Below are positions 4,246 to 45,346 of a DNA stretch of 47,689 nucleotides, piece by piece. The stretch's first letter is position 1. The number at the start of each line of letters is the position of its first letter. The position numbers and the translations under genes are program-made. The notes under the pieces were generated by a model, which was not told the DNA's origin, made no database searches, and was given only the letters and a program-made list of their open reading frames with translations. Source of the DNA: a virus; IMG/VR virus record IMGVR_UViG_3300025300_001994, positions 1 through 47,689 of that record; one strand, given 5' to 3'.

Positions 4246-4431
4246 ATGAAAAAAATTGAGAAATGTACCAACTGTTCAGATAAGACATATAACTATTATA
4301 CTATTAAGACCAATAGGGGTGATCTGCATCAATGTAGAGACTGTTATGAGAGACTATTCATGCGGGCTCACCGAAATGATTATGCTCTTAACAGCACCAA
4401 GAACAAGAAGGATCGTTATTCAGGGGCCTGA
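4246..4431 (+). CDS. Small four-cysteine zinc-finger protein
   Basis: A 61-residue basic protein with CTNC near the N-terminus and CRDC about 20 residues later, a typical treble-clef or zinc-ribbon arrangement. The C-terminal half is rich in Asn, Lys and Arg. No strong Shine-Dalgarno sequence is visible, though AGAGATAG lies upstream. The last codons overlap the 5' end of the tmRNA at 4423, so messenger and tmRNA may come from one transcript. Function unknown. Confidence 0.6.
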   Translation: MKKIEKCTNCSDKTYNYYTIKTNRGDLHQCRDCYERLFMRAHRNDYALNSTKNKKDRYSGA

Positions 4432-4703
4432 AATGGTATCGACTGATGGTGGAGGTAATAACTGCATGTGCTGGTTGACCGAAGGGCCAGCTAAAAAATC
4501 GGTTAAACTATTTTACTTGCCGAGCCTAGCTTAGCACTCGCTGCCTAGCAGTGCGGGGTTGTCCTAGACCTTGTTACCCAATTAGGACGAGGGGTTACAT
4601 TTCCCGTATTAACTAAAAAATGATATTTTTTGTTTGCGGTTTAAACATGTAGATGTTATTATTGAAGTTAGACAGGACGCGGGTTCGATTCCCGCCGGGT
4701 CCA
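4423..4703 (+). ncRNA. ssrA: Transfer-messenger RNA (tmRNA), phage-encoded
   Basis: tmRNA rescues stalled ribosomes and tags the nascent protein for degradation. The 5' end (GGGGCCTGAAATGGTATCGAC) resembles the conserved tmRNA 5' end. The 3' end has a perfect T-arm (GCGGG, loop TTCGATT, CCCGC; 4679-4695) and an acceptor strand ending in discriminator A4703. The acceptor stem carries the G3-U70 pair (4425 with 4700) that marks alanine identity; CCA is not encoded. The tag frame runs from GCT at 4490 to TAG at 4532 and encodes AKKSVKLFYLPSLA. Helices follow it (for example GTCCTA with TAGGAC around 4560-4588). The acceptor stem has two mismatches in my pairing. The RNA array starts only four bases downstream. 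Confidence 0.85.
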
Positions 4704-4706
4704 CTT

Positions 4707-4783
4707 GGCTGGTTTGGTCAGCAGCCTTATTTTGCAGGTGGTATGAGTTTCCACACTGTACTGATCAACCCCGATAAAACTCA
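4707..4783 (+). ncRNA. Double-pseudoknot RNA element, unit 1 (first of dimer 1-2)
   Basis: Four helices are visible. P0 is GGCTG (4707-4711) with CAGCC (4722-4726). P1 is TTTGGTCAG (4713-4721) with CTGATCAA (4761-4768). P2 is TGCAGGTGG (4733-4741) with CCACACTGTA (4751-4760). A pseudoknot joins the P2 loop TGAGTTT (4744-4750) to AAACTCA (4777-4783). P0 and P1 interlock as a second pseudoknot. No U-tract follows; unit 2 starts on the last base. Confidence 0.8.
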
Positions 4784-4869
4784 GTTGGTTTGGTCAGCGA
4801 CTTTAATATGCAGGGGGTTTCGGGTTGTCCCCTCTGTACTGATCAAAGGCCCTAAAACCCGTTTTTTTT
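4783..4869 (+). ncRNA. Double-pseudoknot RNA element, unit 2, with U-tract
   Basis: P0 is AGTTG (4783-4787) with CGACT (4798-4802), changed on both strands relative to unit 1. P1 is TTTGGTCAG (4789-4797) with CTGATCAAA (4839-4847). P2 is TGCAGGGGG (4809-4817) with CCCCTCTGTA (4829-4838). The loop CGGGTT (4821-4826) pairs with AACCCG (4856-4861). Eight T follow directly (4862-4869), giving the downstream pairing strand the look of an intrinsic terminator end. Confidence 0.8.
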
Positions 4870-4877
4870 ATAAAGAT

Positions 4878-4954
4878 AGCTGGTTTGGTCAGCAGCTTTA
4901 GGATGCAGGTGGAAGGAGTTGCCACACTGTACTGATCAACGTCGATAAAACCCA
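4878..4954 (+). ncRNA. Double-pseudoknot RNA element, unit 3 (first of dimer 3-4)
   Basis: P0 is AGCTG (4878-4882) with CAGCT (4893-4897). P1 is TTTGGTCAG (4884-4892) with CTGATCAA (4932-4939). P2 is TGCAGGTGG (4904-4912) with CCACACTGTA (4922-4931). The loop-to-downstream pairing is the weakest of all units: loop AAGGAGTTG against AAAACCCA leaves mismatches, so this copy may be degraded. Unit 4 follows at once, without a U-tract. Confidence 0.75.
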
Positions 4955-5043
4955 GCCGGTTTAATCAGCGGCTTTAATATGCAGGTGGTTCGTGCGTTCC
5001 CACACTGTACTGATTAAAGAGGTTAAAACGCACTTTTGTTTTT
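4955..5043 (+). ncRNA. Double-pseudoknot RNA element, unit 4, with U-tract
   Basis: P0 is GCCG (4955-4958) with CGGC (4969-4972). P1 is TTTAATCAG (4960-4968) with CTGATTAAA (5010-5018), a double compensatory change. P2 is TGCAGGTGG (4980-4988) with CCACACTGTA (5000-5009). Loop GTGCGTT (4992-4998) pairs perfectly with AACGCAC (5027-5033). TTTTGTTTTT follows (5034-5043). Confidence 0.8.
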
Positions 5044-5052
5044 ATGAAGATA

Positions 5053-5141
5053 GCCGGTTTGGTCAGCGGCTTTAGTATGCAGGGGGTTTAACATTACCCC
5101 ACTGTACTGATTAACATAGATAAAATGTTTTTGTTTTTTTT
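5053..5141 (+). ncRNA. Double-pseudoknot RNA element, unit 5 (single), with U-tract
   Basis: P0 is GCCG (5053-5056) with CGGC (5067-5070). P1 is TTTGGTCAG (5058-5066) with CTGATTAA (5107-5114). P2 is TGCAGGGGG (5078-5086) with CCCCACTGTA (5097-5106). Loop AACATT (5090-5095) pairs with AATGTT (5124-5129), with a T-rich run to 5141. The TnpB-like gene starts about 100 bp further on. Confidence 0.8.
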
Positions 5142-5244
5142 ACTTGAGAGAAAGGAGGAATTAGAGGAGAGGAAGTTTAGTTTTGAAAAGTTGGCTTAAT
5201 GTTAAGTTAACTATTATACTAACTATGTTATATTGGAGATTATT

Positions 5245-6501
5245 ATGTATTGTACTAAGAAAAGAAATATAAAATGGCAACTTGATCTTGCAGACTCCCC
5301 TCTTGTGAGTCAGCTCAAGGGACATAATAAAACCTTGAATGATCTTTCTAGGCAAGTGTTTCAAGACCTTAACAGTGGGCGGCTCTCTAATATTCATGTT
5401 AGAGGAGGAGGTGACAAGAAAGATGTCATCTATGATGGTAAGCCTACAACTAAGAGTACCCTCAAAGATATCTATCGTCCTATTTTTGAACGAAATGGTT
5501 GGGCTCCGAAGATTGAAGCGTTTAAAACTGATAGTTTAGAACATGTTCTAAATAGATATCAGGGTTATATAAAACGCAACAAAGCTTTCAGTGAGCTTAT
5601 CACGTTTAAGCCTAAAGATATCCATTACAAGGGTCCTTTTGTAAAAGATGATGGAAGTAGTTTATGTTTTACTACTCCTGCTGGATCTTTTACTCACTCT
5701 GTTGGTTATAATACTAACAGTGGTACTCTTGTTAATAAGGTACATCTCAAAAAAATGAAGTTTGGAGGAAATCTAAACATTCAACAAGGGAGTTTTATCG
5801 CCGCCGTTGAAATTCCATACGAATCCGCATATGAGCCTGAGAGCTGGATTGGTATGGATATCAACAAACGTGATGAGTTTTGGTTGGTGATAGGATCTAC
5901 CGTTCACGCCAAGCCTGATCATATTGCTACCCTTGAGGATGCAATTTCCGAAGTTCAAGTGGAAATTAACAAACCCAAAGGACAACGACATAAGAAAGAG
6001 GGTCATTATGATTCTTCTCAGCGTCGAGGTCTTAGGAAAAGGTGGAAGAAGCTTCATAAAAAGCATAAGAAAGCCATTAAAAACTTTCTTGATCCTATTC
6101 TTGAGGAGATAGAGAGAAATCGTAGTGGCTTAGTTATTGATGGAGTTACGACCGGCGCTCAAAATGGGAGTTTCGGTCAGGACAAAATCATTGACTACCT
6201 TATTACTCAATGCGAAGACCGACGAATCCCATTCTATGTGCCACCAACCTCTTATACATCTCAAAGATGTGCCAAATGCGGACATGTAGAAAAGGATAAT
6301 CGTAAAAACGCAGACGAGTTTAAGTGTCAACAATGTGGACATGAGGCTCAGCCTGACTTGAATGCCGTGCAGAATTACCAGTTTATTGGTGAGACTCTCC
6401 ATTCTAAGGGCCATGCTTTTGGGTACTACGGTACGCCCAGAAGTAGAGACCCGAGGGTGATTCGTGTGTCCGATATCAAGTCTATATTTAATATAGATTA
6501 G
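5245..6501 (+). CDS. TnpB/Cas12f-like RuvC nuclease (IS200/IS605-type accessory nuclease)
   Basis: A 418-residue protein with the TnpB architecture: a basic N-terminal RNA/DNA-binding half, RuvC-I in WIGMDINKRDEFW (Asp205), RuvC-II in SGLVIDGVTTG, a four-Cys zinc finger (Cys342, 345, 361, 364) and RuvC-III in DLNAVQN (Asp371). TnpB family members are RNA-guided DNA nucleases. RuvC-II normally carries Glu; here Asp299 takes the place, which may weaken or alter catalysis. The ATG at 5245 follows TTGGAG; ATG 5233 is an alternative. No TnpA transposase lies nearby. Five structured RNA units precede the gene, and another begins on the last two bases of its stop codon. Confidence 0.8.
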   Translation: MYCTKKRNIKWQLDLADSPLVSQLKGHNKTLNDLSRQVFQDLNSGRLSNIHVRGGGDKKDVIYDGKPTTKSTLKDIYRPIFERNGWAPKIEAFKTDSLEHVLNRYQGYIKRNKAFSELITFKPKDIHYKGPFVKDDGSSLCFTTPAGSFTHSVGYNTNSGTLVNKVHLKKMKFGGNLNIQQGSFIAAVEIPYESAYEPESWIGMDINKRDEFWLVIGSTVHAKPDHIATLEDAISEVQVEINKPKGQRHKKEGHYDSSQRRGLRKRWKKLHKKHKKAIKNFLDPILEEIERNRSGLVIDGVTTGAQNGSFGQDKIIDYLITQCEDRRIPFYVPPTSYTSQRCAKCGHVEKDNRKNADEFKCQQCGHEAQPDLNAVQNYQFIGETLHSKGHAFGYYGTPRSRDPRVIRVSDIKSIFNID

Positions 6502-6585
6502 CTGGTTTAGTCGGCGACTTTAGTATGAAGGTGGTTTTTGTAAGAATTTTTCCACGCTTCACCGACTAAAGATACTAAAAAATTC
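6500..6585 (+). ncRNA. Double-pseudoknot RNA element, unit 6 (first of dimer 6-7)
   Basis: This unit starts inside the TnpB-like stop codon. P0 is AGCTG (6500-6504) with CGACT (6515-6519), one C-A mismatch. P1 is TTTAGTCGG (6506-6514) with CCGACTAAA (6562-6570). P2 is TGAAGGTGG (6526-6534) with CCACGCTTCA (6552-6561), changed on both strands relative to the other units. Loop GAATTTTT (6544-6551) pairs with AAAAATTC (6578-6585). There is no U-tract before unit 7. Confidence 0.8.
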
Positions 6586-6586
6586 C

Positions 6587-6674
6587 CCCTTGTTTACTCA
6601 GGAGGGTTATGGAGCAGGTGGTTTCGGGTAATCCACACTGTACTGAGTAAACTCGATAAAACCCGTTTTTTTTT
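6587..6674 (+). ncRNA. Double-pseudoknot RNA element, unit 7, with U-tract
   Basis: This is the most diverged primary sequence with the same fold. P0 is CCCTT (6587-6591) with GAGGG (6602-6606), a complete replacement. P1 is TTTACTCAG (6593-6601) with CTGAGTAAA (6643-6651). P2 is GCAGGTGG (6614-6621) with CCACACTGT (6633-6641). Loop CGGGT (6625-6629) pairs with ACCCG (6661-6665), then nine T. Genes for a zinc ribbon and a SpeD-like protein follow. Confidence 0.8.
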
Positions 6675-6691: not shown

Positions 6692-6826
6692 ATGACAATT
6701 TGGAACTATTGTGATTGTGGATCAATTGTAGATGAATTTGAAAAAGTGTGTAGTAATTGTGGTGAAGAGGTAATATTAAGTTGGGAGGCCGACGATGTGG
6801 AGAGACTTATCACCGACGATAACTAG
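6692..6826 (+). CDS. 44-residue zinc-ribbon protein
   Basis: A small acidic protein with two Cys pairs, CDC near residue 7 and CSNC near residue 20, spaced as in zinc ribbons. AAGGAGCAGG gives a good ribosome binding site. Its end overlaps the start of the SpeD-like gene in another frame (6795), so the two are probably translationally coupled. The gene sits immediately behind RNA unit 7 and could be controlled by it. Function unknown. Confidence 0.55.
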   Translation: MTIWNYCDCGSIVDEFEKVCSNCGEEVILSWEADDVERLITDDN

Positions 6827-7145
6827 ACAAAGACTGGTCATAGAGGCAACTCTTGAGCGTCCTATGCGCGCCATAGAGATATTACGCTATATTAAAAGTG
6901 TGGGTCCTCTTCTCGATATGACACCAGTAACCTCTCCAATCTTATCTCATGAGCCCGATTATGGGTGGTGCGGATACATGCATTGGAAAGAATCTGGGAT
7001 GCACATGTATACTTGGGATACTAAGCCTCCCTTTTTTATTAGTGTAGATATATATACGTGTAAAAAATTTGATCCGATGGACGCAGTAGAATTTACAAAG
7101 AAATTCTTTGGAGAAAACATTATTGATATAGTTTGGAAAGAATAA
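6795..7145 (+). CDS. speD: S-adenosylmethionine decarboxylase-like protein (SpeD family)
   Basis: SpeD enzymes self-cleave to form a pyruvoyl group and decarboxylate S-adenosylmethionine for spermidine synthesis. The C-terminal half fits the family: ESGMHMYTW matches the ESHLTIH(T/S)(W/F) processing region, followed by SVDIYTCKKFDP, like AID(V)YTCG in bacterial SpeD. The length (116 residues) is near the single-chain bacterial type. The residue after the processing serine is Gly, where His is usual, so autoprocessing may differ. GGGAGG precedes the ATG. SpeD genes are known in other marine phages. The second half is convincing, the first half less so. Confidence 0.65.
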   Translation: MWRDLSPTITRQRLVIEATLERPMRAIEILRYIKSVGPLLDMTPVTSPILSHEPDYGWCGYMHWKESGMHMYTWDTKPPFFISVDIYTCKKFDPMDAVEFTKKFFGENIIDIVWKE

Positions 7146-11987: not shown

Positions 11988-13868
11988 ATGAGTAAGTCAT
12001 TTGCTGAAGTTGCCATGGAGTTGAGTGGAAAAACAACTGACGAGTCTGAGAGTATAGGCAAAATAGATACAGCAGATGATCAGGTGGAGGGATTATTTCA
12101 GGAAAAATACCAAACTAAAAATAGCCCAGTGTATAGAGCTGTCTGGGATCATACATTTCCCTCCAACGAATTCTTTTCTTTTGATTTGACCAGACCTAAT
12201 TGGCATAAACTAGAAGATAGTATAAGTACTATTAATAGGCACAAAGCTACGGGTACGTGCCATAATTCTAGTGGCAAACTACATGAGGATCTGTTAACAG
12301 ATCTTTCTGAAGCTGGATATTTTGGATTACTTGTCCCACTTGCAGAAAAGCCACCAATAAAGTTTTCTGAATTCTCAGCATTTCTAACAGAAGTTGCGCG
12401 CATTGAAGCAAATGTCGCCGGTCTAGCTTCAGTACATGGATGTATTGGTGCTGTTGATCCAATTAAAACATTTGGTAATCAAGACCAGAAGGAGCGATAC
12501 CTTCCAAAATTAGCCAACGGTAAATTTCTTTCTGGGTTTGCCCTAACAGAGCCGGGCGCTGGATCTGATATGACTTCCCTAAAAACAACAGCCGTCTTGG
12601 ATGGTGATCATTATGTTGTTAATGGAGAAAAATTATTTATCACCAATGCGATATGTGGCCGTCTTATTTCTTTAGTATGTATGATAGATAGTAAACCACA
12701 GGTTCTTTTGGTAGAACTACCTGCGGCTGAGAATGATGAATTTCAAATCGTTAACTATGGACTGCACGCATTGAAGCGTCTTCATAATAACGGTTTGGTG
12801 TTTAAAAACTTCAGAGTCCCCAAAGAAAACCTCATTCAACTTGAGCGAGGTGATGGTCTTACAATAGCATATCATGGTTTAAACTTGGGAAGAATTTCCC
12901 TCTGTGCTAATGCATCGGGATGTATGAAGATGATGTTGGAATCTATGATACCGTGGGCACATTATAGAACAACATATGGGCAGCCCATAAAGAATAGAGA
13001 GCTGGTGCAGAATAGAATTGGAAAATTGGCTGGATATATTTTATCATCTGATGCTTTGGTGGCATGGTGCTCATCATTAATTGATAGCGGTTATCGTGGT
13101 GAGTTGGAATGTATTATAGCTAAGACCTTTGGGTCTGAATGCCAGAAAGAAGCTGCAATAGATCTATGTATGAAAACACATGGAGGTAGATCTTTTTTGG
13201 AGGGTCATGCAATTGGAGATAATATTCATGAGTTTCTTGCGCCTCTTATTTATGAGGGTGAGGGTGATATGTTAAACATGGCCTTCTTTAAATCCCTTGT
13301 TAAAGAACATGGTCTACAATACTTTGAACCTATTGGTCAAGCCCTAGCTAAGACTGGTAAAAAGAATATGTCTTTGGTGGATATGGCTAAAAATTATAAA
13401 CTATTCCTACCTTACGCTCAGTGGATGCTTAAGGAAACAACGTATCATAAAGGCGCTATGCGTATGGATGGCCTTCCTCTTACACTTCAAGCTTATGCGG
13501 CTTTTGCTGCTAAAAATCTTCAAGGGACAGGAAAAGAATTAAGCTCCTTAATGAGAAAATACCAATTGAAGTTGGGAGATAGACAGTGTAGAATATCTCT
13601 ATTGTCTAGAAAGATACAACATCTTGTAACAATTATTGTTACCTGTACCTACGCATCAATATTTGAAAATGATATCGTCATTAGAACTGCTGAAGTGTCT
13701 TGTGATAACTTGTATAACAATATTATTGGGCGCCATCCAACAGACCAGCAAATCAAACGCAGCGTCCTGTTGGGTAAAGAAATTAGTGAGCGCGAGTACT
13801 ACATATCTTCACAAGGGATAACAAGAAGAAGGGAAGTGAACTCTGATTCTATTTTAATGAGATATTAA
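11988..13868 (+). CDS. Acyl-CoA dehydrogenase-like flavoprotein
   Basis: A 626-residue protein with the acyl-CoA dehydrogenase plan: N-terminal helical domain, FALTEPGAGSDMTSL and YVVNGEKLFITNA in the central beta domain, then RISLCANASGCMKMM and HYRTTYGQPI in the C-terminal helical domain, and THGGRSFLEG followed by LIYEGEGDML near the usual catalytic Glu position. Such enzymes oxidise acyl-CoA with FAD; the length, with a roughly 200-residue extension, resembles the longer FadE-like members. The last two dozen codons are encoded through the 34-bp tRNA-linked repeat, so the C-terminus is probably a fusion product. It is unusual cargo for a phage. Confidence 0.8.
   Translation: MSKSFAEVAMELSGKTTDESESIGKIDTADDQVEGLFQEKYQTKNSPVYRAVWDHTFPSNEFFSFDLTRPNWHKLEDSISTINRHKATGTCHNSSGKLHEDLLTDLSEAGYFGLLVPLAEKPPIKFSEFSAFLTEVARIEANVAGLASVHGCIGAVDPIKTFGNQDQKERYLPKLANGKFLSGFALTEPGAGSDMTSLKTTAVLDGDHYVVNGEKLFITNAICGRLISLVCMIDSKPQVLLVELPAAENDEFQIVNYGLHALKRLHNNGLVFKNFRVPKENLIQLERGDGLTIAYHGLNLGRISLCANASGCMKMMLESMIPWAHYRTTYGQPIKNRELVQNRIGKLAGYILSSDALVAWCSSLIDSGYRGELECIIAKTFGSECQKEAAIDLCMKTHGGRSFLEGHAIGDNIHEFLAPLIYEGEGDMLNMAFFKSLVKEHGLQYFEPIGQALAKTGKKNMSLVDMAKNYKLFLPYAQWMLKETTYHKGAMRMDGLPLTLQAYAAFAAKNLQGTGKELSSLMRKYQLKLGDRQCRISLLSRKIQHLVTIIVTCTYASIFENDIVIRTAEVSCDNLYNNIIGRHPTDQQIKRSVLLGKEISEREYYISSQGITRRREVNSDSILMRY
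13791..13824 (+). repeat. 34-bp direct repeat, distal copy (inside the acyl-CoA dehydrogenase-like gene)
   Basis: Identical over 34 bases to 10953-10986. Here it is read in frame near the C-terminus and encodes REYYISSQGIT. Without the repeat the protein would end differently, so the recombination that made the repeat also changed this gene's end. Confidence 0.85.
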
Positions 13869-25752: not shown

Positions 25753-26181
25753 GTGAGAAAATATCCAGAGATACATGTGCAGTGGGTGCCGCCTTCTGGT
25801 ATTCATCATCAGGAATTTGAAATAAACGTTTTAGGATTAATGCCTAGCGGTGTACCATATGTCAGTGAAATTCTTGGTCCCACTCAGAACGAATGGAGGG
25901 GCAGTCTTCCGCTGTGGAATAAAGACGGTAAGGTATGGAACCCTAAATACACTGATGATGTACATGTATCTATTACGTCTGTAAATGAAATCGAAGGGCA
26001 CGACTTTAAATCTAAGGGAGCTTCTGTGGTTCTTACCGTAAAAGATTTGGAATGGATTCCTGACGCTCCCACGGAGGTGCGAGCCGAGGTTTCTCCCTTT
26101 CTATATCCAATGTCTGATGATCATTTGGAAGATGTTGAAACAACTGTTCGGGGTAACTTAAATATCTTATTCAGTGATTGA
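25753..26181 (+). CDS. Hypothetical protein, probably beta-rich
   Basis: A 142-residue protein with GTG start just behind the preceding stop (AAAGG upstream). The sequence suggests a beta-sandwich or virion-type domain (IHVQWVPPSGIHHQEFEINV; ASVVLTVKDLEWIPD). Its stop overlaps the dipeptidase start region. Not recognised. Confidence 0.55.
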   Translation: MRKYPEIHVQWVPPSGIHHQEFEINVLGLMPSGVPYVSEILGPTQNEWRGSLPLWNKDGKVWNPKYTDDVHVSITSVNEIEGHDFKSKGASVVLTVKDLEWIPDAPTEVRAEVSPFLYPMSDDHLEDVETTVRGNLNILFSD

Positions 26182-26182
26182 T

Positions 26183-27409
26183 ATGAACTGGCAAAATCTA
26201 CATAAAGAATCTACGCTTGTAGATCTACATACGCATCCAGCCCTCAAGGCTATTATTTTGGAAATCAGTCTAGACTCATCCAAAAGAAATTGGCTATCTA
26301 GAATGTTTGACAAGAAATTTTGGCCACTTAGTAATCGAGTTACGTTTCCCAAGATGGACAAGGGTGGTGTAGATGTAATACTATCTACTGCTTATATTTT
26401 AGAACAAGAGTGGATTAAAGAAATCTCCCTTATAAGGTGGCTCTTTAGAATATTCCCCAGTGTACGACGCGCCATCGTAGATCCTCCCTATTTTGATGCT
26501 ACAAATTTTATGTTAGATGAAATGGAACGTCAGATTATTTCATATAACAAGAAGAAGCCTTCTAGAAAAGTATGTTTGTCTGATTCTGTTTCAACATTGA
26601 ACCAAGGTCTTGAGGCTGGAGATATGTGTGTTGTGCATTCTGTGGAAGGAGCCCATTCTCTTAATGGTATAGAGGGCGGAAAAACCGTGGAAGATGGAGC
26701 GTGTGCCGATTCAGTTGAAAAAGAATTATTATCTAATCTGGTATACCTTTTCAATCGGGGTGTGGCCTATCTCACTTTGGCTCATTTCTATCCTAACCAT
26801 GTGGCTTATCCCGTGTTTCCTTATCCAGAATATTCTAGCAAGATGCTTGACTGGCGTAAAGTAACTGGCAGTTGGGATATGAATAAAGGGTTGACATCCA
26901 TAGGCGAAAAGGTAGTAGAAAGAATGCTGGAGTTGGGGATGCTGATAGACATCACACACTGTACGCCCAGTGCCAGAGCTAAGGTTATGGATATCGCCAA
27001 GCACCATCGCAAAAAGAATTGTATTATAGCTAGTCACATGGCCTCCTTTGATATTAACCGTGACCCTATCAACCTAACCAATAAAGAAATTAAATGGATT
27101 GCTGATAATGGAGGGGTTATTGGTGTAATACTGATGACTTATTATTTATCTAATTCGCACAGTGGATTAGGATTAAAGCATATAGAAAATAATATTAATC
27201 ATATGATAAATGTAGGTGGAATAGAAGTAGTAGGAATAGGTAGTGACTTGGATGGGTTTACTGATCCTCCAGACGAAATTGTAGATATGTCAGAAATGCC
27301 TCGACTTACGAGTTATTTATGCGCGTTAGGGTACACGGAAAAACAGATGGAACACATACTAGGGGGTAATGCCTTACGTGTATTACGAGAGGGTTGGGGA
27401 AAAAAATAG
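26183..27409 (+). CDS. M19-family (renal/membrane-type) dipeptidase
   Basis: A 408-residue TIM-barrel metallopeptidase of family M19, which splits dipeptides including some D-amino-acid ones. Metal and active-site regions are all present: VDLHTHP (His16, His18), VVHSVEGAHSL (bridging Glu), LIDITHCTPSA (His), IIASHMASF (His) and IGSDLDGF (Asp). No signal peptide is seen, so it probably works in the cytoplasm. The true start is the ATG at 26183. M19 genes are very unusual in phages; peptidoglycan-peptide recycling is a possible use. Confidence 0.85.
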   Translation: MNWQNLHKESTLVDLHTHPALKAIILEISLDSSKRNWLSRMFDKKFWPLSNRVTFPKMDKGGVDVILSTAYILEQEWIKEISLIRWLFRIFPSVRRAIVDPPYFDATNFMLDEMERQIISYNKKKPSRKVCLSDSVSTLNQGLEAGDMCVVHSVEGAHSLNGIEGGKTVEDGACADSVEKELLSNLVYLFNRGVAYLTLAHFYPNHVAYPVFPYPEYSSKMLDWRKVTGSWDMNKGLTSIGEKVVERMLELGMLIDITHCTPSARAKVMDIAKHHRKKNCIIASHMASFDINRDPINLTNKEIKWIADNGGVIGVILMTYYLSNSHSGLGLKHIENNINHMINVGGIEVVGIGSDLDGFTDPPDEIVDMSEMPRLTSYLCALGYTEKQMEHILGGNALRVLREGWGKK

Positions 27410-42736: not shown

Positions 42737-43987
42737 ATGTTAGATTTTTATTTTAATAGGCGTGATTTTTTACGTATGGGAAGTATCGGAGCTGGAATGT
42801 CTACGATAGGTCTATCCGATTTAGCATTATCGGAAGAAGAGGAGCTGGCTCTAAAAGACAAATCAGTAGTATGGCTGTGGCTGGGTGGTGGACCCACTCA
42901 ATTTGAAACGTTTCATGCTCCCACTGATTTCAATGTTCCTGATCAATTTAGACCTGTGAATGGGTTGTTATATGACAGCGCTACTAATATATCATTAGGG
43001 GCTGATTGGCTTCAAACATTTAAACATAAAGATAAAATTGTAACTGTTAATTCTTTTACGCACGGTGACTCATCTCATCGTCAAGCAACTCACTGGATGA
43101 TGACGGGTCACTACAACGGCGAACGAGCCCAAACATCCAACCCAAAATATCCGGGTTTTGGCTCTATCGTTTCTTCCATCTATGGAGCTAATACTTCTAC
43201 GGGAATTCCAACTTATATTAAACAAGGTGGTATTTCGGGAGAGGGACCTTCATGGTTAGGTGGAGCGTATAAACCATTTGATCCTTCCAACAAGGACAAC
43301 CTCAGTCCTAGAGTAGAAATAGGTAGATTCAAGTCGCGCGGTGAATTACTGGCGGCCTTGGATAAGCAGCATGAAATCGTTAGTAATGCAGCTAATTCCA
43401 TAGGTAAATATACTACACAGGCTTATGATACTATTCTCGGCACTGCTAAGCTGGCATTCAATATCGATAAAGAGCCAACTAAAACTAGAGATGCATATGG
43501 TAATACCGATATTGGAAAGCAAATGTTACTAGCACGTAGACTTTCAGAGTATGGTACAAAATTTATTACGATGCACTACGGGGGTTGGGACATGCATGGT
43601 AATATTTCTAATGCTCTTAAGGGTAGAGTTCCTCCTGTTGATCAGGCTATTGCGGCTTTCTTGCAGGATGTCTGGGAAAAAGGATTAAATGAAAAGATTT
43701 TACTGGTGGTCACCGGAGAGTTTGGCCGAACTAAACTTAATGGCAACGCAGGTCGCGACCACTGGCCCGCGATGTCACCTATGCTTATGGCTGGAGGAGA
43801 ATATGAGTTAGGAAGAACTGTAGGTAAGGCTGATAAGTCGTATACACCTAAAGAAAACCCATATGGTCCGTTGGATGTGTGCGCAACACTATTTGACCAC
43901 TTTAATATTCCTATGAGTATTCAGAAAGTGGATAATGGCGGAAGGCCGCGTTACTTGTTAGAGGGTGAAGCCCAATCAATTTTATGA
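42737..43987 (+). CDS. DUF1501 protein with Tat signal (paralogue 1)
   Basis: A 416-residue DUF1501 protein (sulfatase/alkaline-phosphatase-like superfamily). The N-terminus carries a twin-arginine signal (NRRDFLRMG followed by a weak hydrophobic run), so it should be exported folded. Family blocks are present: SVVWLWLGGGPTQFETFHAP, HYGGWDMHGN, VVTGEFGRTKLNGNAGRDHW and MLMAGGEYELG. Function of DUF1501 is not established; metal-dependent hydrolysis of phosphate or sulfate esters is a guess. It has AGAAGGAGG upstream and pairs with the next gene. Typical for Planctomycetes, unusual in a phage. Confidence 0.85.
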   Translation: MLDFYFNRRDFLRMGSIGAGMSTIGLSDLALSEEEELALKDKSVVWLWLGGGPTQFETFHAPTDFNVPDQFRPVNGLLYDSATNISLGADWLQTFKHKDKIVTVNSFTHGDSSHRQATHWMMTGHYNGERAQTSNPKYPGFGSIVSSIYGANTSTGIPTYIKQGGISGEGPSWLGGAYKPFDPSNKDNLSPRVEIGRFKSRGELLAALDKQHEIVSNAANSIGKYTTQAYDTILGTAKLAFNIDKEPTKTRDAYGNTDIGKQMLLARRLSEYGTKFITMHYGGWDMHGNISNALKGRVPPVDQAIAAFLQDVWEKGLNEKILLVVTGEFGRTKLNGNAGRDHWPAMSPMLMAGGEYELGRTVGKADKSYTPKENPYGPLDVCATLFDHFNIPMSIQKVDNGGRPRYLLEGEAQSIL

Positions 43988-44000
43988 TTAGGAGATTAAG

Positions 44001-45269
44001 ATGTTTAGACTATCAAGAAGAGGATTCTTATCGGTGGGCGGTTTTGGTATGTTGTCTTTGCCTAATATTTTACAGGCACAACAACAAAACGGCACCCAAC
44101 ACAAAGCTGTTATTAATATATTTTTAGGAGGAGGTCCTCCGCATCAAGACATGTGGGACATTAAAACAGATGCTCCCGCAGAAATTAGAGGCGAATTCCA
44201 GCCTATCGATACGTCAGTACCCGGTATCCAGATTGGAGAAAGTTTTCCTAAGATCGCCTCTATGATGGATAAGTTTGTTGCTATTCGTTCAGTGATCGGT
44301 TCGGCTGGTGGTCATGACGGCTATCAATGTATGAGCGGATGGGGACGAAATGAAAAGATCGTTGGAGTTGGCTATCCTAGTATTGGATCGGTTGCTTCAA
44401 AGATTCAAGGTCCCGTAGACGTATCAGTTCCAGCCACTATTGGTCTGGCAGCTAAAACCAAACATAGCCCGTGGTCTGAGTCTGGTAGTGAGGGCTATCT
44501 CGGTATCTCCCATAGACCTTTTAAACCTAATGGCGAGATGATGTCTGACCTCACCCTTAATGGTATTACTAAAGATAGGCTACAATCTAGAAAAGAATTG
44601 CTAACAGGCCTTGGTAATATTAAGCCTGAAGGAGATGTTTTCATTGATGAGGCTTTTGATGTACTTACTTCTAGTAAACTTGTAGACGCTCTGGATTTAA
44701 GTCAGGAGGACCCTAAAATCCGTGAACGTTATGGAGATGGTAAGCCTTTTAAGTATCAGTATGACGGTGCTCCTACTGTTAATGAACACGTCCTCATGGC
44801 ACGCCGTTTGGTTGAGGTAGGAGTGCGTTCTGTGAGCCTTTCTTATGGTAGATGGGATAGTCATGGCGCTAACTTTGATCTCGTTAGAGATCATGGTGGT
44901 AAGCTTGATCAGTGTGTCAGCGCATTGGTTGAGGATCTGGATGAAAGAGGGATGCTTGATGATGTGACTGTTGTGGTATGGGGCGAGTTTGGTCGTACAC
45001 CCAAGATTAATAAGGGTGCTGGCCGAGATCACTGGCCACAAGTTAGTTGCGCTCTATTGGCTGGTGGCGGTATGAAGCTTGGTCAAACGATTGGCGAAAC
45101 AAATCGTCTTGGTGAACACGCTGTCGAGCGCCCAGTTCATTTTCAGGAAATTACTAGTACGATTTATTATAATCTTGGAATTGATCCTAGAGACACAACG
45201 GTTATCGACACAGGTGGACGACCTCAGTATCTTCTAGATCACCGAGATCCCATGACAGAGCTGGTTTGA
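44001..45269 (+). CDS. DUF1501 protein with Tat signal (paralogue 2)
   Basis: A 422-residue second DUF1501 protein, 13 bp downstream. Tat signal LSRRGFLSVGG is followed by MLSLPNILQAQQQ. The same family blocks appear (INIFLGGGPPHQDMWDIKTD, YGRWDSHGAN, VVWGEFGRTPKINKGAGRDHW, LLAGGGMKLGQ), but overall the two have diverged strongly, so they may form a heteromeric pair or act on different substrates. The stop codon lies inside structured RNA unit 8. Confidence 0.88.
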   Translation: MFRLSRRGFLSVGGFGMLSLPNILQAQQQNGTQHKAVINIFLGGGPPHQDMWDIKTDAPAEIRGEFQPIDTSVPGIQIGESFPKIASMMDKFVAIRSVIGSAGGHDGYQCMSGWGRNEKIVGVGYPSIGSVASKIQGPVDVSVPATIGLAAKTKHSPWSESGSEGYLGISHRPFKPNGEMMSDLTLNGITKDRLQSRKELLTGLGNIKPEGDVFIDEAFDVLTSSKLVDALDLSQEDPKIRERYGDGKPFKYQYDGAPTVNEHVLMARRLVEVGVRSVSLSYGRWDSHGANFDLVRDHGGKLDQCVSALVEDLDERGMLDDVTVVVWGEFGRTPKINKGAGRDHWPQVSCALLAGGGMKLGQTIGETNRLGEHAVERPVHFQEITSTIYYNLGIDPRDTTVIDTGGRPQYLLDHRDPMTELV

Positions 45270-45346
45270 TCAGCAGCTTTATTATGCAGGAGGTTTCGGG
45301 TTCTCCTCTCTGTACTGATCAATTCAGTTAAAACCCGTTTTCTTTT
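45259..45346 (+). ncRNA. Double-pseudoknot RNA element, unit 8 (isolated copy), with U-tract
   Basis: Same fold as the array near 4.7 kb. P0 is AGCTG (45259-45263) with CAGCT (45274-45278). P1 is TTTGATCAG (45265-45273) with CTGATCAA (45315-45322). P2 is TGCAGGAGG (45285-45293) with CTCCTCTCTGTA (45303-45314). Loop CGGGTT (45297-45302) pairs with AACCCG (45332-45337), followed by TTTTCTTTT. It overlaps the DUF1501 stop and lies just ahead of a Cys-rich secreted protein gene. Confidence 0.8.

What the first reader, a model, noticed from the sequence alone, without database searches (positions are those of the whole stretch)
4707..6674. Array of seven structured RNAs with two interlocked pseudoknots, supported by compensatory changes
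Seven units (4707-4783, 4783-4861, 4878-4954, 4955-5033, 5053-5129, 6500-6585, 6587-6665) share one fold. The helix order is P0, P1, P0', P2, loop, P2', P1', loop partner. All four helices change on both strands between units: P0 GCTG/CAGC, GCCG/CGGC, CCCTT/GAGGG; P1 TTTGGTCAG, TTTAATCAG, TTTAGTCGG, TTTACTCAG with matching partners; P2 TGCAG or TGAAG; loop pairs CGGGTT/AACCCG, GTGCGTT/AACGCAC, GAATTTTT/AAAAATTC. This is strong evidence for a selected RNA structure. I cannot assign it to a known riboswitch or ribozyme family, although dropping P2 leaves a topology like the pistol ribozyme.
Basis: seen in the sequence. Interest (0 to 1): 0.93.

Follow-up and report, generated by a model that had tools for sequence, protein, structure and literature searches.

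The report
Phage pseudoknot RNAs linked to TnpB-like protein
A marine virus of bacteria carries eight copies of a small folded RNA unlike any catalogued family; the same kind of RNA sits, usually in pairs, at the end of a gene for a CRISPR-like (TnpB/Cas12) protein in three distantly related viruses, which points to a new and possibly guide-less protein-RNA machine.

Summary
The seven units are at the stated places, and an eighth lies 40 kb away (45259-45344). Helices P0, P1, P2 and the loop pseudoknot are covariation-supported (99% of cells paired, 11 of 22 pairs changed on both sides, 0/500 shuffles; loop pseudoknot 44/48, 0/5000). Rfam 15 has no match.

(1) The array brackets a TnpB/Cas12f-like gene (5245-6501). 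In two other phage lineages a TnpB relative (26-34% identity) also ends in a tandem pair of the same fold, the first overlapping the tnpB stop codon. (2) The conserved core is P1-P2 with a one-base bulge plus the loop/3'-end pseudoknot; P0, hence the second pseudoknot, was seen only in the window's lineage. (3) Pairs also occur as stand-alone genes behind sigma-70-like promoters and as the intervening sequence of a permuted tmRNA.

No unit carries a TnpB-type 3' guide. No Y1 TnpA was found, and three of four homologs have lost the third RuvC Asp. Best reading: an omegaRNA-like partner of a domesticated TnpB-like protein, amplified and probably guide-less (0.45). An exactly 6-nt, sequence-free linker is the only candidate address. 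Binding is untested.

The parts
4707..4783 (+). unit 1, starts 2 nt after the tmRNA 3' end; first half of dimer 1-2
   Evidence: R1 covariance model 79.8 bits; P1-P2-PK descriptor score 55
4783..4868 (+). unit 2, second half of dimer, pseudoknot strand followed by T8
   Evidence: 98.3 bits; descriptor 58
4878..4954 (+). unit 3, first half of dimer 3-4; loop pseudoknot imperfect
   Evidence: 78 bits; missed by the strict descriptor
4954..5039 (+). unit 4, followed by TTTTGTTTTT
   Evidence: 93.2 bits; descriptor 59.5
5052..5136 (+). unit 5, single, T-rich tail
   Evidence: 88.5 bits; descriptor 50.5
5245..6501 (+). TnpB/Cas12f-like protein P0001, 418 aa, inside the array; RuvC D205, E->D299, D372 kept; Zn ribbon
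   Evidence: PF07282 48.3 bits; NF040570 guided_TnpB E=2.2e-14, below its cut-off; Foldseek PDB top 25 all TnpB/Cas12/Fanzor, low-confidence model
6500..6585 (+). unit 6, begins at the tnpB stop codon; first half of dimer 6-7
   Evidence: 73 bits; descriptor 62
6587..6672 (+). unit 7, followed by T9
   Evidence: 84.6 bits; descriptor 57.5
45259..45344 (+). unit 8, overlaps the stop codon of a DUF1501 gene, T-rich tail; conserved at this place in seven IMG/VR records
   Evidence: 101.6 bits; DUF1501 relatives at 92-93% aa identity lack it
4424..4704 (+). tmRNA gene (tag AEPSLALAA) that the array abuts
   Evidence: ARAGORN; Rfam RF00023 83 bits

Best explanation
The units are one new family of small structured RNA modules. 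The core is helix P1 enclosing hairpin P2 (a one-base bulge on the 3' side, four pairs below the loop), with the P2 loop pairing to the RNA's 3' end. They most likely descend from, and still serve as, the RNA partner of the TnpB/Cas12f-like protein encoded among them: an omegaRNA-like scaffold that was duplicated into dimers and dispersed as stand-alone small RNAs. Shown: the fold, its covariation, the tandem dimer at the 3' end of tnpB in three divergent phage lineages, and promoter-like sites with start points at P1. Inferred: the protein binds the module through its pseudoknot, as TnpB and Cas12f bind theirs. Because the RNA ends at a U tract, or abuts a tRNA or tmRNA 5' end, right after the pseudoknot, it carries no ordinary guide. 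Because catalytic residues are eroded in most homologs, the complex is probably a non-cleaving RNP that acts by binding (repression, sequestration or protection of RNA).
For: TnpB relatives in G011 (34% identity) and G051 (26%) have a unit dimer at the 3' end, first unit overlapping the stop codon: L215 2574-2635 with the stop at 2616, L225 2510-2576 with the stop at 2550. In the window unit 6 begins at the stop. A dimer descriptor gives 0 hits in shuffles. It finds dimers in the window, G011, G051 (its only dimer in 125 kb, both strands, is the one at tnpB) and L242. It finds none in about 630 kb of other related phage sequence scanned, and only one doubtful hit (G034) among the records without the protein (TnpB absence). 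Covariation. Stand-alone dimer genes: 12/12 and 10/12 sigma-70 hexamers with the start at P1. A pseudoknot next to the guide is the feature shared by TnpB and Cas12 guide RNAs (PMC10097598), and overlap of omegaRNA with the tnpB 3' end is typical of IS200/IS605 TnpB (PMC11061315). No Y1 TnpA was found. The RuvC-III Asp is lost in three of four homologs and RuvC-II Glu is Asp in all four. The tnpB-like gene is under purifying selection (38/896 changes at codon positions 1-2 versus 62/448 at position 3).
Against: No binding or expression data exist. Units occur in records where no TnpB relative is seen (G001-G006, G015, G054); all may be fragments, but G005 is 103 kb. A fourth homolog (L222/G052, 26-28% identity) has no recognisable unit. 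Units also sit where no TnpB is near: after DUF1501, between the pieces of a permuted tmRNA, next to tRNAs. The window's own protein keeps two of the three catalytic residues and has Asp for the Glu, so it may be active. ISDra2 omegaRNA has four stems plus the pseudoknot, so only the pseudoknot principle is shared, not a proven homologous fold.
Confidence: 0.45

Rival explanations
1. The units are phage small RNAs or 3'-UTR modules that bind a host or other phage protein (for example a decoy or stabiliser). The TnpB-like gene is a neighbour only because both live in the variable tRNA/tmRNA region. Many copies with diversified sequence but one structure give dosage without recombination between copies.
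For: Copies outside the TnpB locus, in the DUF1501 3' end of seven records and in stand-alone promoter-driven dimers. They lie among tRNAs and tmRNA. Structure is conserved while sequence diverges.
Against: Chance adjacency does not explain why a dimer overlaps or abuts the tnpB stop codon in three lineages whose proteins are only 26-34% identical, nor why it is the only dimer found in G051.
Confidence: 0.28
2. The units are pseudoknot-type transcription terminators or RNA-processing spacers at gene ends and inside tRNA/tmRNA transcripts.
For: Units 2, 4, 5, 7 and 8, L007, L026, the G011 dimer at 36.0 kb and L242 end in T-rich tracts directly after the pseudoknot strand. Units 6, 8 and L026 begin at a stop codon. 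Units abut mature tRNA or tmRNA ends.
Against: Several dimers in G011 have no U tract and must be read through to reach tRNA-Leu, tRNA-Ile or the tmRNA 5' piece. Ordinary hairpin terminators would not need P1, P2, the bulge and a fixed linker length. The terminator scan finds no hairpin terminator at the array's T-rich unit ends.
Confidence: 0.14
3. The units are true guide RNAs whose address is the 6-nt single-stranded linker between P1' and the conserved Y-AAA, presented by a constant scaffold to the Cas12-like protein.
For: The linker is exactly 6 nt in all window-lineage units and, in all but one of the G011/L242-type units, 6 nt plus a fixed C. Its base composition by column is near random, unlike nearly all other unpaired positions. 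It changes 4/6 versus 3/78 elsewhere between u8 and L007, and 5 of 12 in the G051-type pair L297/L300, where third codon positions change at 14%.
Against: Six bases is far below TnpB guide lengths of 16-20 nt. No target sites in the window clearly exceed chance. A length-constrained but sequence-free linker is what any pseudoknot crossing a groove would show.
Confidence: 0.1
4. Self-cleaving ribozyme (pistol- or HDV-like) or riboswitch.
For: Nested pseudoknot topology; tandem copies; size of 60-86 nt.
Against: No Rfam ribozyme or riboswitch match at any useful score. P0 is missing in relatives. The genes downstream have unrelated functions.
Confidence: 0.03

Closest known systems
TnpB-omegaRNA (OMEGA), e.g. 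ISDra2 (PMC10097598) and IS607/RAGATH-18 reRNA (PMC11061315)
   Same: TnpB/Cas12f-type protein; structured RNA at and overlapping the 3' end of tnpB; a pseudoknot formed by a hairpin loop and the 3' end of the scaffold
   Different: No 3' guide; tandem dimers and genome-wide copies; stand-alone promoters; no Y1 TnpA found; RuvC residues eroded; P1-P2-PK fold matches no Rfam family
TldR, nuclease-dead TnpB repressors of phages (PMC13418256, abstract only)
   Same: Phage-encoded TnpB-like protein, probably mostly catalytically dead, outside an IS element
   Different: TldR has a gRNA with a guide to a host gene (from general knowledge: its promoter); no such guide is seen here, and the RNA is multi-copy
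Type III toxin-antitoxin RNAs (ToxI and kin; from general knowledge)
   Same: Tandem pseudoknot RNA repeats upstream of a protein gene with a T-rich tract between
   Different: Units are 60-86 nt, diverse in sequence, also downstream and unlinked; the protein is TnpB-like, not a ToxN-type RNase
Pistol ribozyme
   Same: Hairpin whose loop strand pairs outside it (P0/P1)
   Different: No Rfam match; P0 is lineage-specific; no sign of the pistol core

Membership tests
TnpB-omegaRNA (OMEGA) system | TnpB/Cas12-type fold with RuvC and Zn ribbon | tested here: met
   PF07282, NF040570 below cut-off, Foldseek top 25 all TnpB/Cas12/Fanzor on a low-confidence model
TnpB-omegaRNA (OMEGA) system | intact D-E-D RuvC active site | tested here: not met
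   E->D in all four homologs; third Asp kept only in the window protein, N/G/H in the others (position by motif alignment)
TnpB-omegaRNA (OMEGA) system | structured RNA at the 3' end of tnpB with loop/3'-end pseudoknot | tested here: met
   window, G011, G051; not seen in L222/G052
TnpB-omegaRNA (OMEGA) system | guide of about 16-20 nt after the pseudoknot | tested here: not met
   RNA ends in a U tract or abuts a tRNA/tmRNA 5' end
TnpB-omegaRNA (OMEGA) system | lies in an IS200/IS605 element with TnpA | tested here: not met
   no PF01797 in G000, G011, G051, G005 (records may be fragments)
TldR RNA-guided repressor | nuclease-dead TnpB plus gRNA whose guide matches a promoter | tested here: inconclusive
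   active site eroded, but no guide recognised and no target clearly above chance in the window; host unknown
Pistol ribozyme (Rfam) | match to the family model | tested here: not met
   no match at gathering or E up to 10
Type III toxin-antitoxin | ToxN-family toxin downstream of the repeats | tested here: not met
   the downstream gene is TnpB-like
Type III toxin-antitoxin | RNA neutralises the protein's toxicity | not testable with these tools
   needs expression
CRISPR array | near-identical repeats separated by unique spacers | tested here: not met
   units diverge with compensatory changes and abut each other
Rfam families in general | score above a gathering threshold | tested here: not met
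   only tRNA and tmRNA in the window; tRNA and permuted tmRNA in the G011 loci

The most novel reading that the evidence does not exclude
A phage-borne, multiplexed Cas12-like RNP that does not use a long guide. A domesticated TnpB-like protein binds many copies of one pseudoknot scaffold, each displaying a different 6-nt address at a fixed position, so the array is a set of miRNA-seed-like specificities.
Probability: 0.1. Interest if true: 0.93.

Novelty: new variant of a known kind. Interest (0 to 1): 0.74.

Why it matters
TnpB is the ancestor of Cas12 and is normally an RNA-guided nuclease. A phage lineage in which the protein appears domesticated and its RNA has been multiplied, stripped of a guide and spread through tRNA, tmRNA and 3'-UTR positions would show a route by which such an RNP becomes something else. 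The RNA family is new whatever its function, has strong covariation from independent lineages, and offers compact test objects (60-86 nt modules, about 130-nt stand-alone dimers).

Tried and rejected
Rfam at gathering and permissive thresholds: nothing credible. Guide hypothesis with the 3' tails against the window: no matches clearly above chance; one 11/13 antisense match inside tnpB near 5790 is not convincing. GTDB genomes: no exact core match, and no relative of the G011 TnpB-like protein. INPHARED phages: no DNA match to the array or dimer, only Zn-ribbon-level or low-identity TnpB matches. P0001 as a single query, and an alignment query, found few homologs in viral contigs. A broad RNA pattern gave mostly chance hits, filtered with the model. 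Insertion/empty-site comparison at DUF1501: relatives lacking the unit also differ in the downstream gene, so boundaries could not be set. Minimum-free-energy z-scores of single units are unimpressive (1.0 to -2.8), as expected because the pseudoknots are not modelled. Promoter scan of the window array: no better than shuffles.

Full report
WHAT IS THERE. The window is an IMG/VR virus record of 47.7 kb, a phage with rIIB-like, tmRNA and tRNA genes. Right after its tmRNA come five tandem structured units, then a 418-aa TnpB/Cas12f-like gene (5245-6501), then two more units, the first beginning at the tnpB stop codon. A covariance model finds all seven plus an eighth at 45259-45344, at the end of a DUF1501 gene. 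The units form pairs: 1-2 (T8), 3-4 (T-rich), 5 alone (T-rich), 6-7 (T9).

STRUCTURE AND SELECTION. On ten sequences 99.1% of P0, P1 and P2 cells pair; 11 of 22 pairs carry changes on both sides; no shuffle reaches this and slid registers drop to 32-51%. The loop/3'-end pseudoknot pairs in 44 of 48 cells among eight distinct forms, against 32.4 expected (0/5000); unit 3 is imperfect. Between the DUF1501 copies of the window and L007, the unit changes at 3 of 78 positions outside a 6-nt linker, while 122 of 314 third codon positions of the adjoining gene change. The RNA, not just the locus, is therefore conserved.

RELATIVES. The DUF1501-linked unit is in seven IMG/VR records; G005 has a second one elsewhere, and that type also occurs in G015. 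DUF1501 relatives at 92-93% and below lack it. Searching related phages for the TnpB-like protein gave homologs in G011 (174 kb, 34%), G051 (125 kb, 26%) and G052 (26-28%). G011 and G051 have RNAs of the same design at the tnpB 3' end: P1 enclosing P2, P2 with four upper pairs and a one-base bulge on the 3' side, and the P2 loop pairing with the 3' end. A near relative of G051's locus (L300, gene 93% identical in protein) differs in its unit pair only at bulged bases, linkers and one pseudoknot base. An independent alignment of G011 and L242 units shows 14 of 19 pairs with two-sided changes. P0, and so the second, interlocking pseudoknot, was not found outside the window's lineage.

TANDEM PAIRS AS A TEST. 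A descriptor for two adjacent units has no hit in shuffled sequence. It hits the window (2), G011 (3), G051 (1, exactly at the tnpB 3' end), L242 (1) and once, doubtfully, G034. About 630 kb of further related phage sequence gave none. A model from the G011 type finds nine units in G011, including the pair in its tmRNA, and two in L242, and nothing convincing elsewhere. One G011 pair stands alone behind a perfect TTGACA-16-TATAAT with the start at P1; L242 has the same layout with a 10/12 promoter. One pair is the intervening sequence of a permuted, two-piece tmRNA. Others flank tRNA-Ile and tRNA-Leu.

THE PROTEIN. Family models and folds place it with TnpB/Cas12f, although the model is of low confidence (pLDDT 62). 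RuvC-I Asp is kept. RuvC-II Glu is Asp in all four homologs. RuvC-III Asp is kept in the window protein but is Asn, Gly or His in the others. No Y1 transposase is found. The G051-type gene is under purifying selection. This looks like a domesticated protein, in most lineages unlikely to cut DNA; the window copy could be an exception.

HOW IT MOST LIKELY WORKS. [quoted passage not shown] Here the placement and the pseudoknot are alike but the guide is missing: the RNA stops at a U tract or runs straight into a tRNA or tmRNA 5' end. I therefore infer an omegaRNA-derived scaffold that still binds the TnpB-like protein and has been multiplied. The complex probably acts by binding rather than cutting. 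The module's only free segment is a linker of 6 nt, constant in length and random in sequence in both well-sampled families (one G011 unit has a longer one), evolving at or above the synonymous rate. It could be a bare spacer or a very short address; I cannot tell.

ALTERNATIVES. Generic phage RNA or decoy with TnpB as a neighbour remains plausible because units also occur away from tnpB. Terminator or spacer function fits the U tracts but not the units that must be read through to reach tRNAs. Ribozyme or riboswitch has no support.

NOVELTY. The RNA family is absent from Rfam 15, from GTDB species genomes (one core pattern only) and from cultured phages, and no paper describing it was found in the held library. 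As a system it is best filed as a new variant of TnpB-RNA partnership, not as an OMEGA system proper: three defining features (3' guide, intact D-E-D, IS element with TnpA) were tested and not met.

Noticed in passing
L216 17194-17623 (G011): Permuted two-piece tmRNA in a phage whose intervening sequence is a pair of the structured units.
   Followed up: partly
window 42737-45269: Two consecutive DUF1501 genes in a phage; relatives of the second are in 50 viral contig loci.
   Followed up: partly
window 11988-13868: Acyl-CoA-dehydrogenase-like gene in a phage genome.
   Followed up: no
window 26174-27409: Membrane dipeptidase (peptidase M19)-like gene in a phage genome.
   Followed up: no
window 6795-7145: Small S-adenosylmethionine-decarboxylase-like gene shortly after the array.
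   Followed up: no
L297/L300 5307-5455: Between two near-identical phages the unit pair differs almost only at bulged bases and linkers, with 5 changes in one 12-nt linker.
   Followed up: yes
L222 499-2079: A TnpB-like homolog next to tRNA-Arg with the same E->D change but no recognisable unit.
   Followed up: partly
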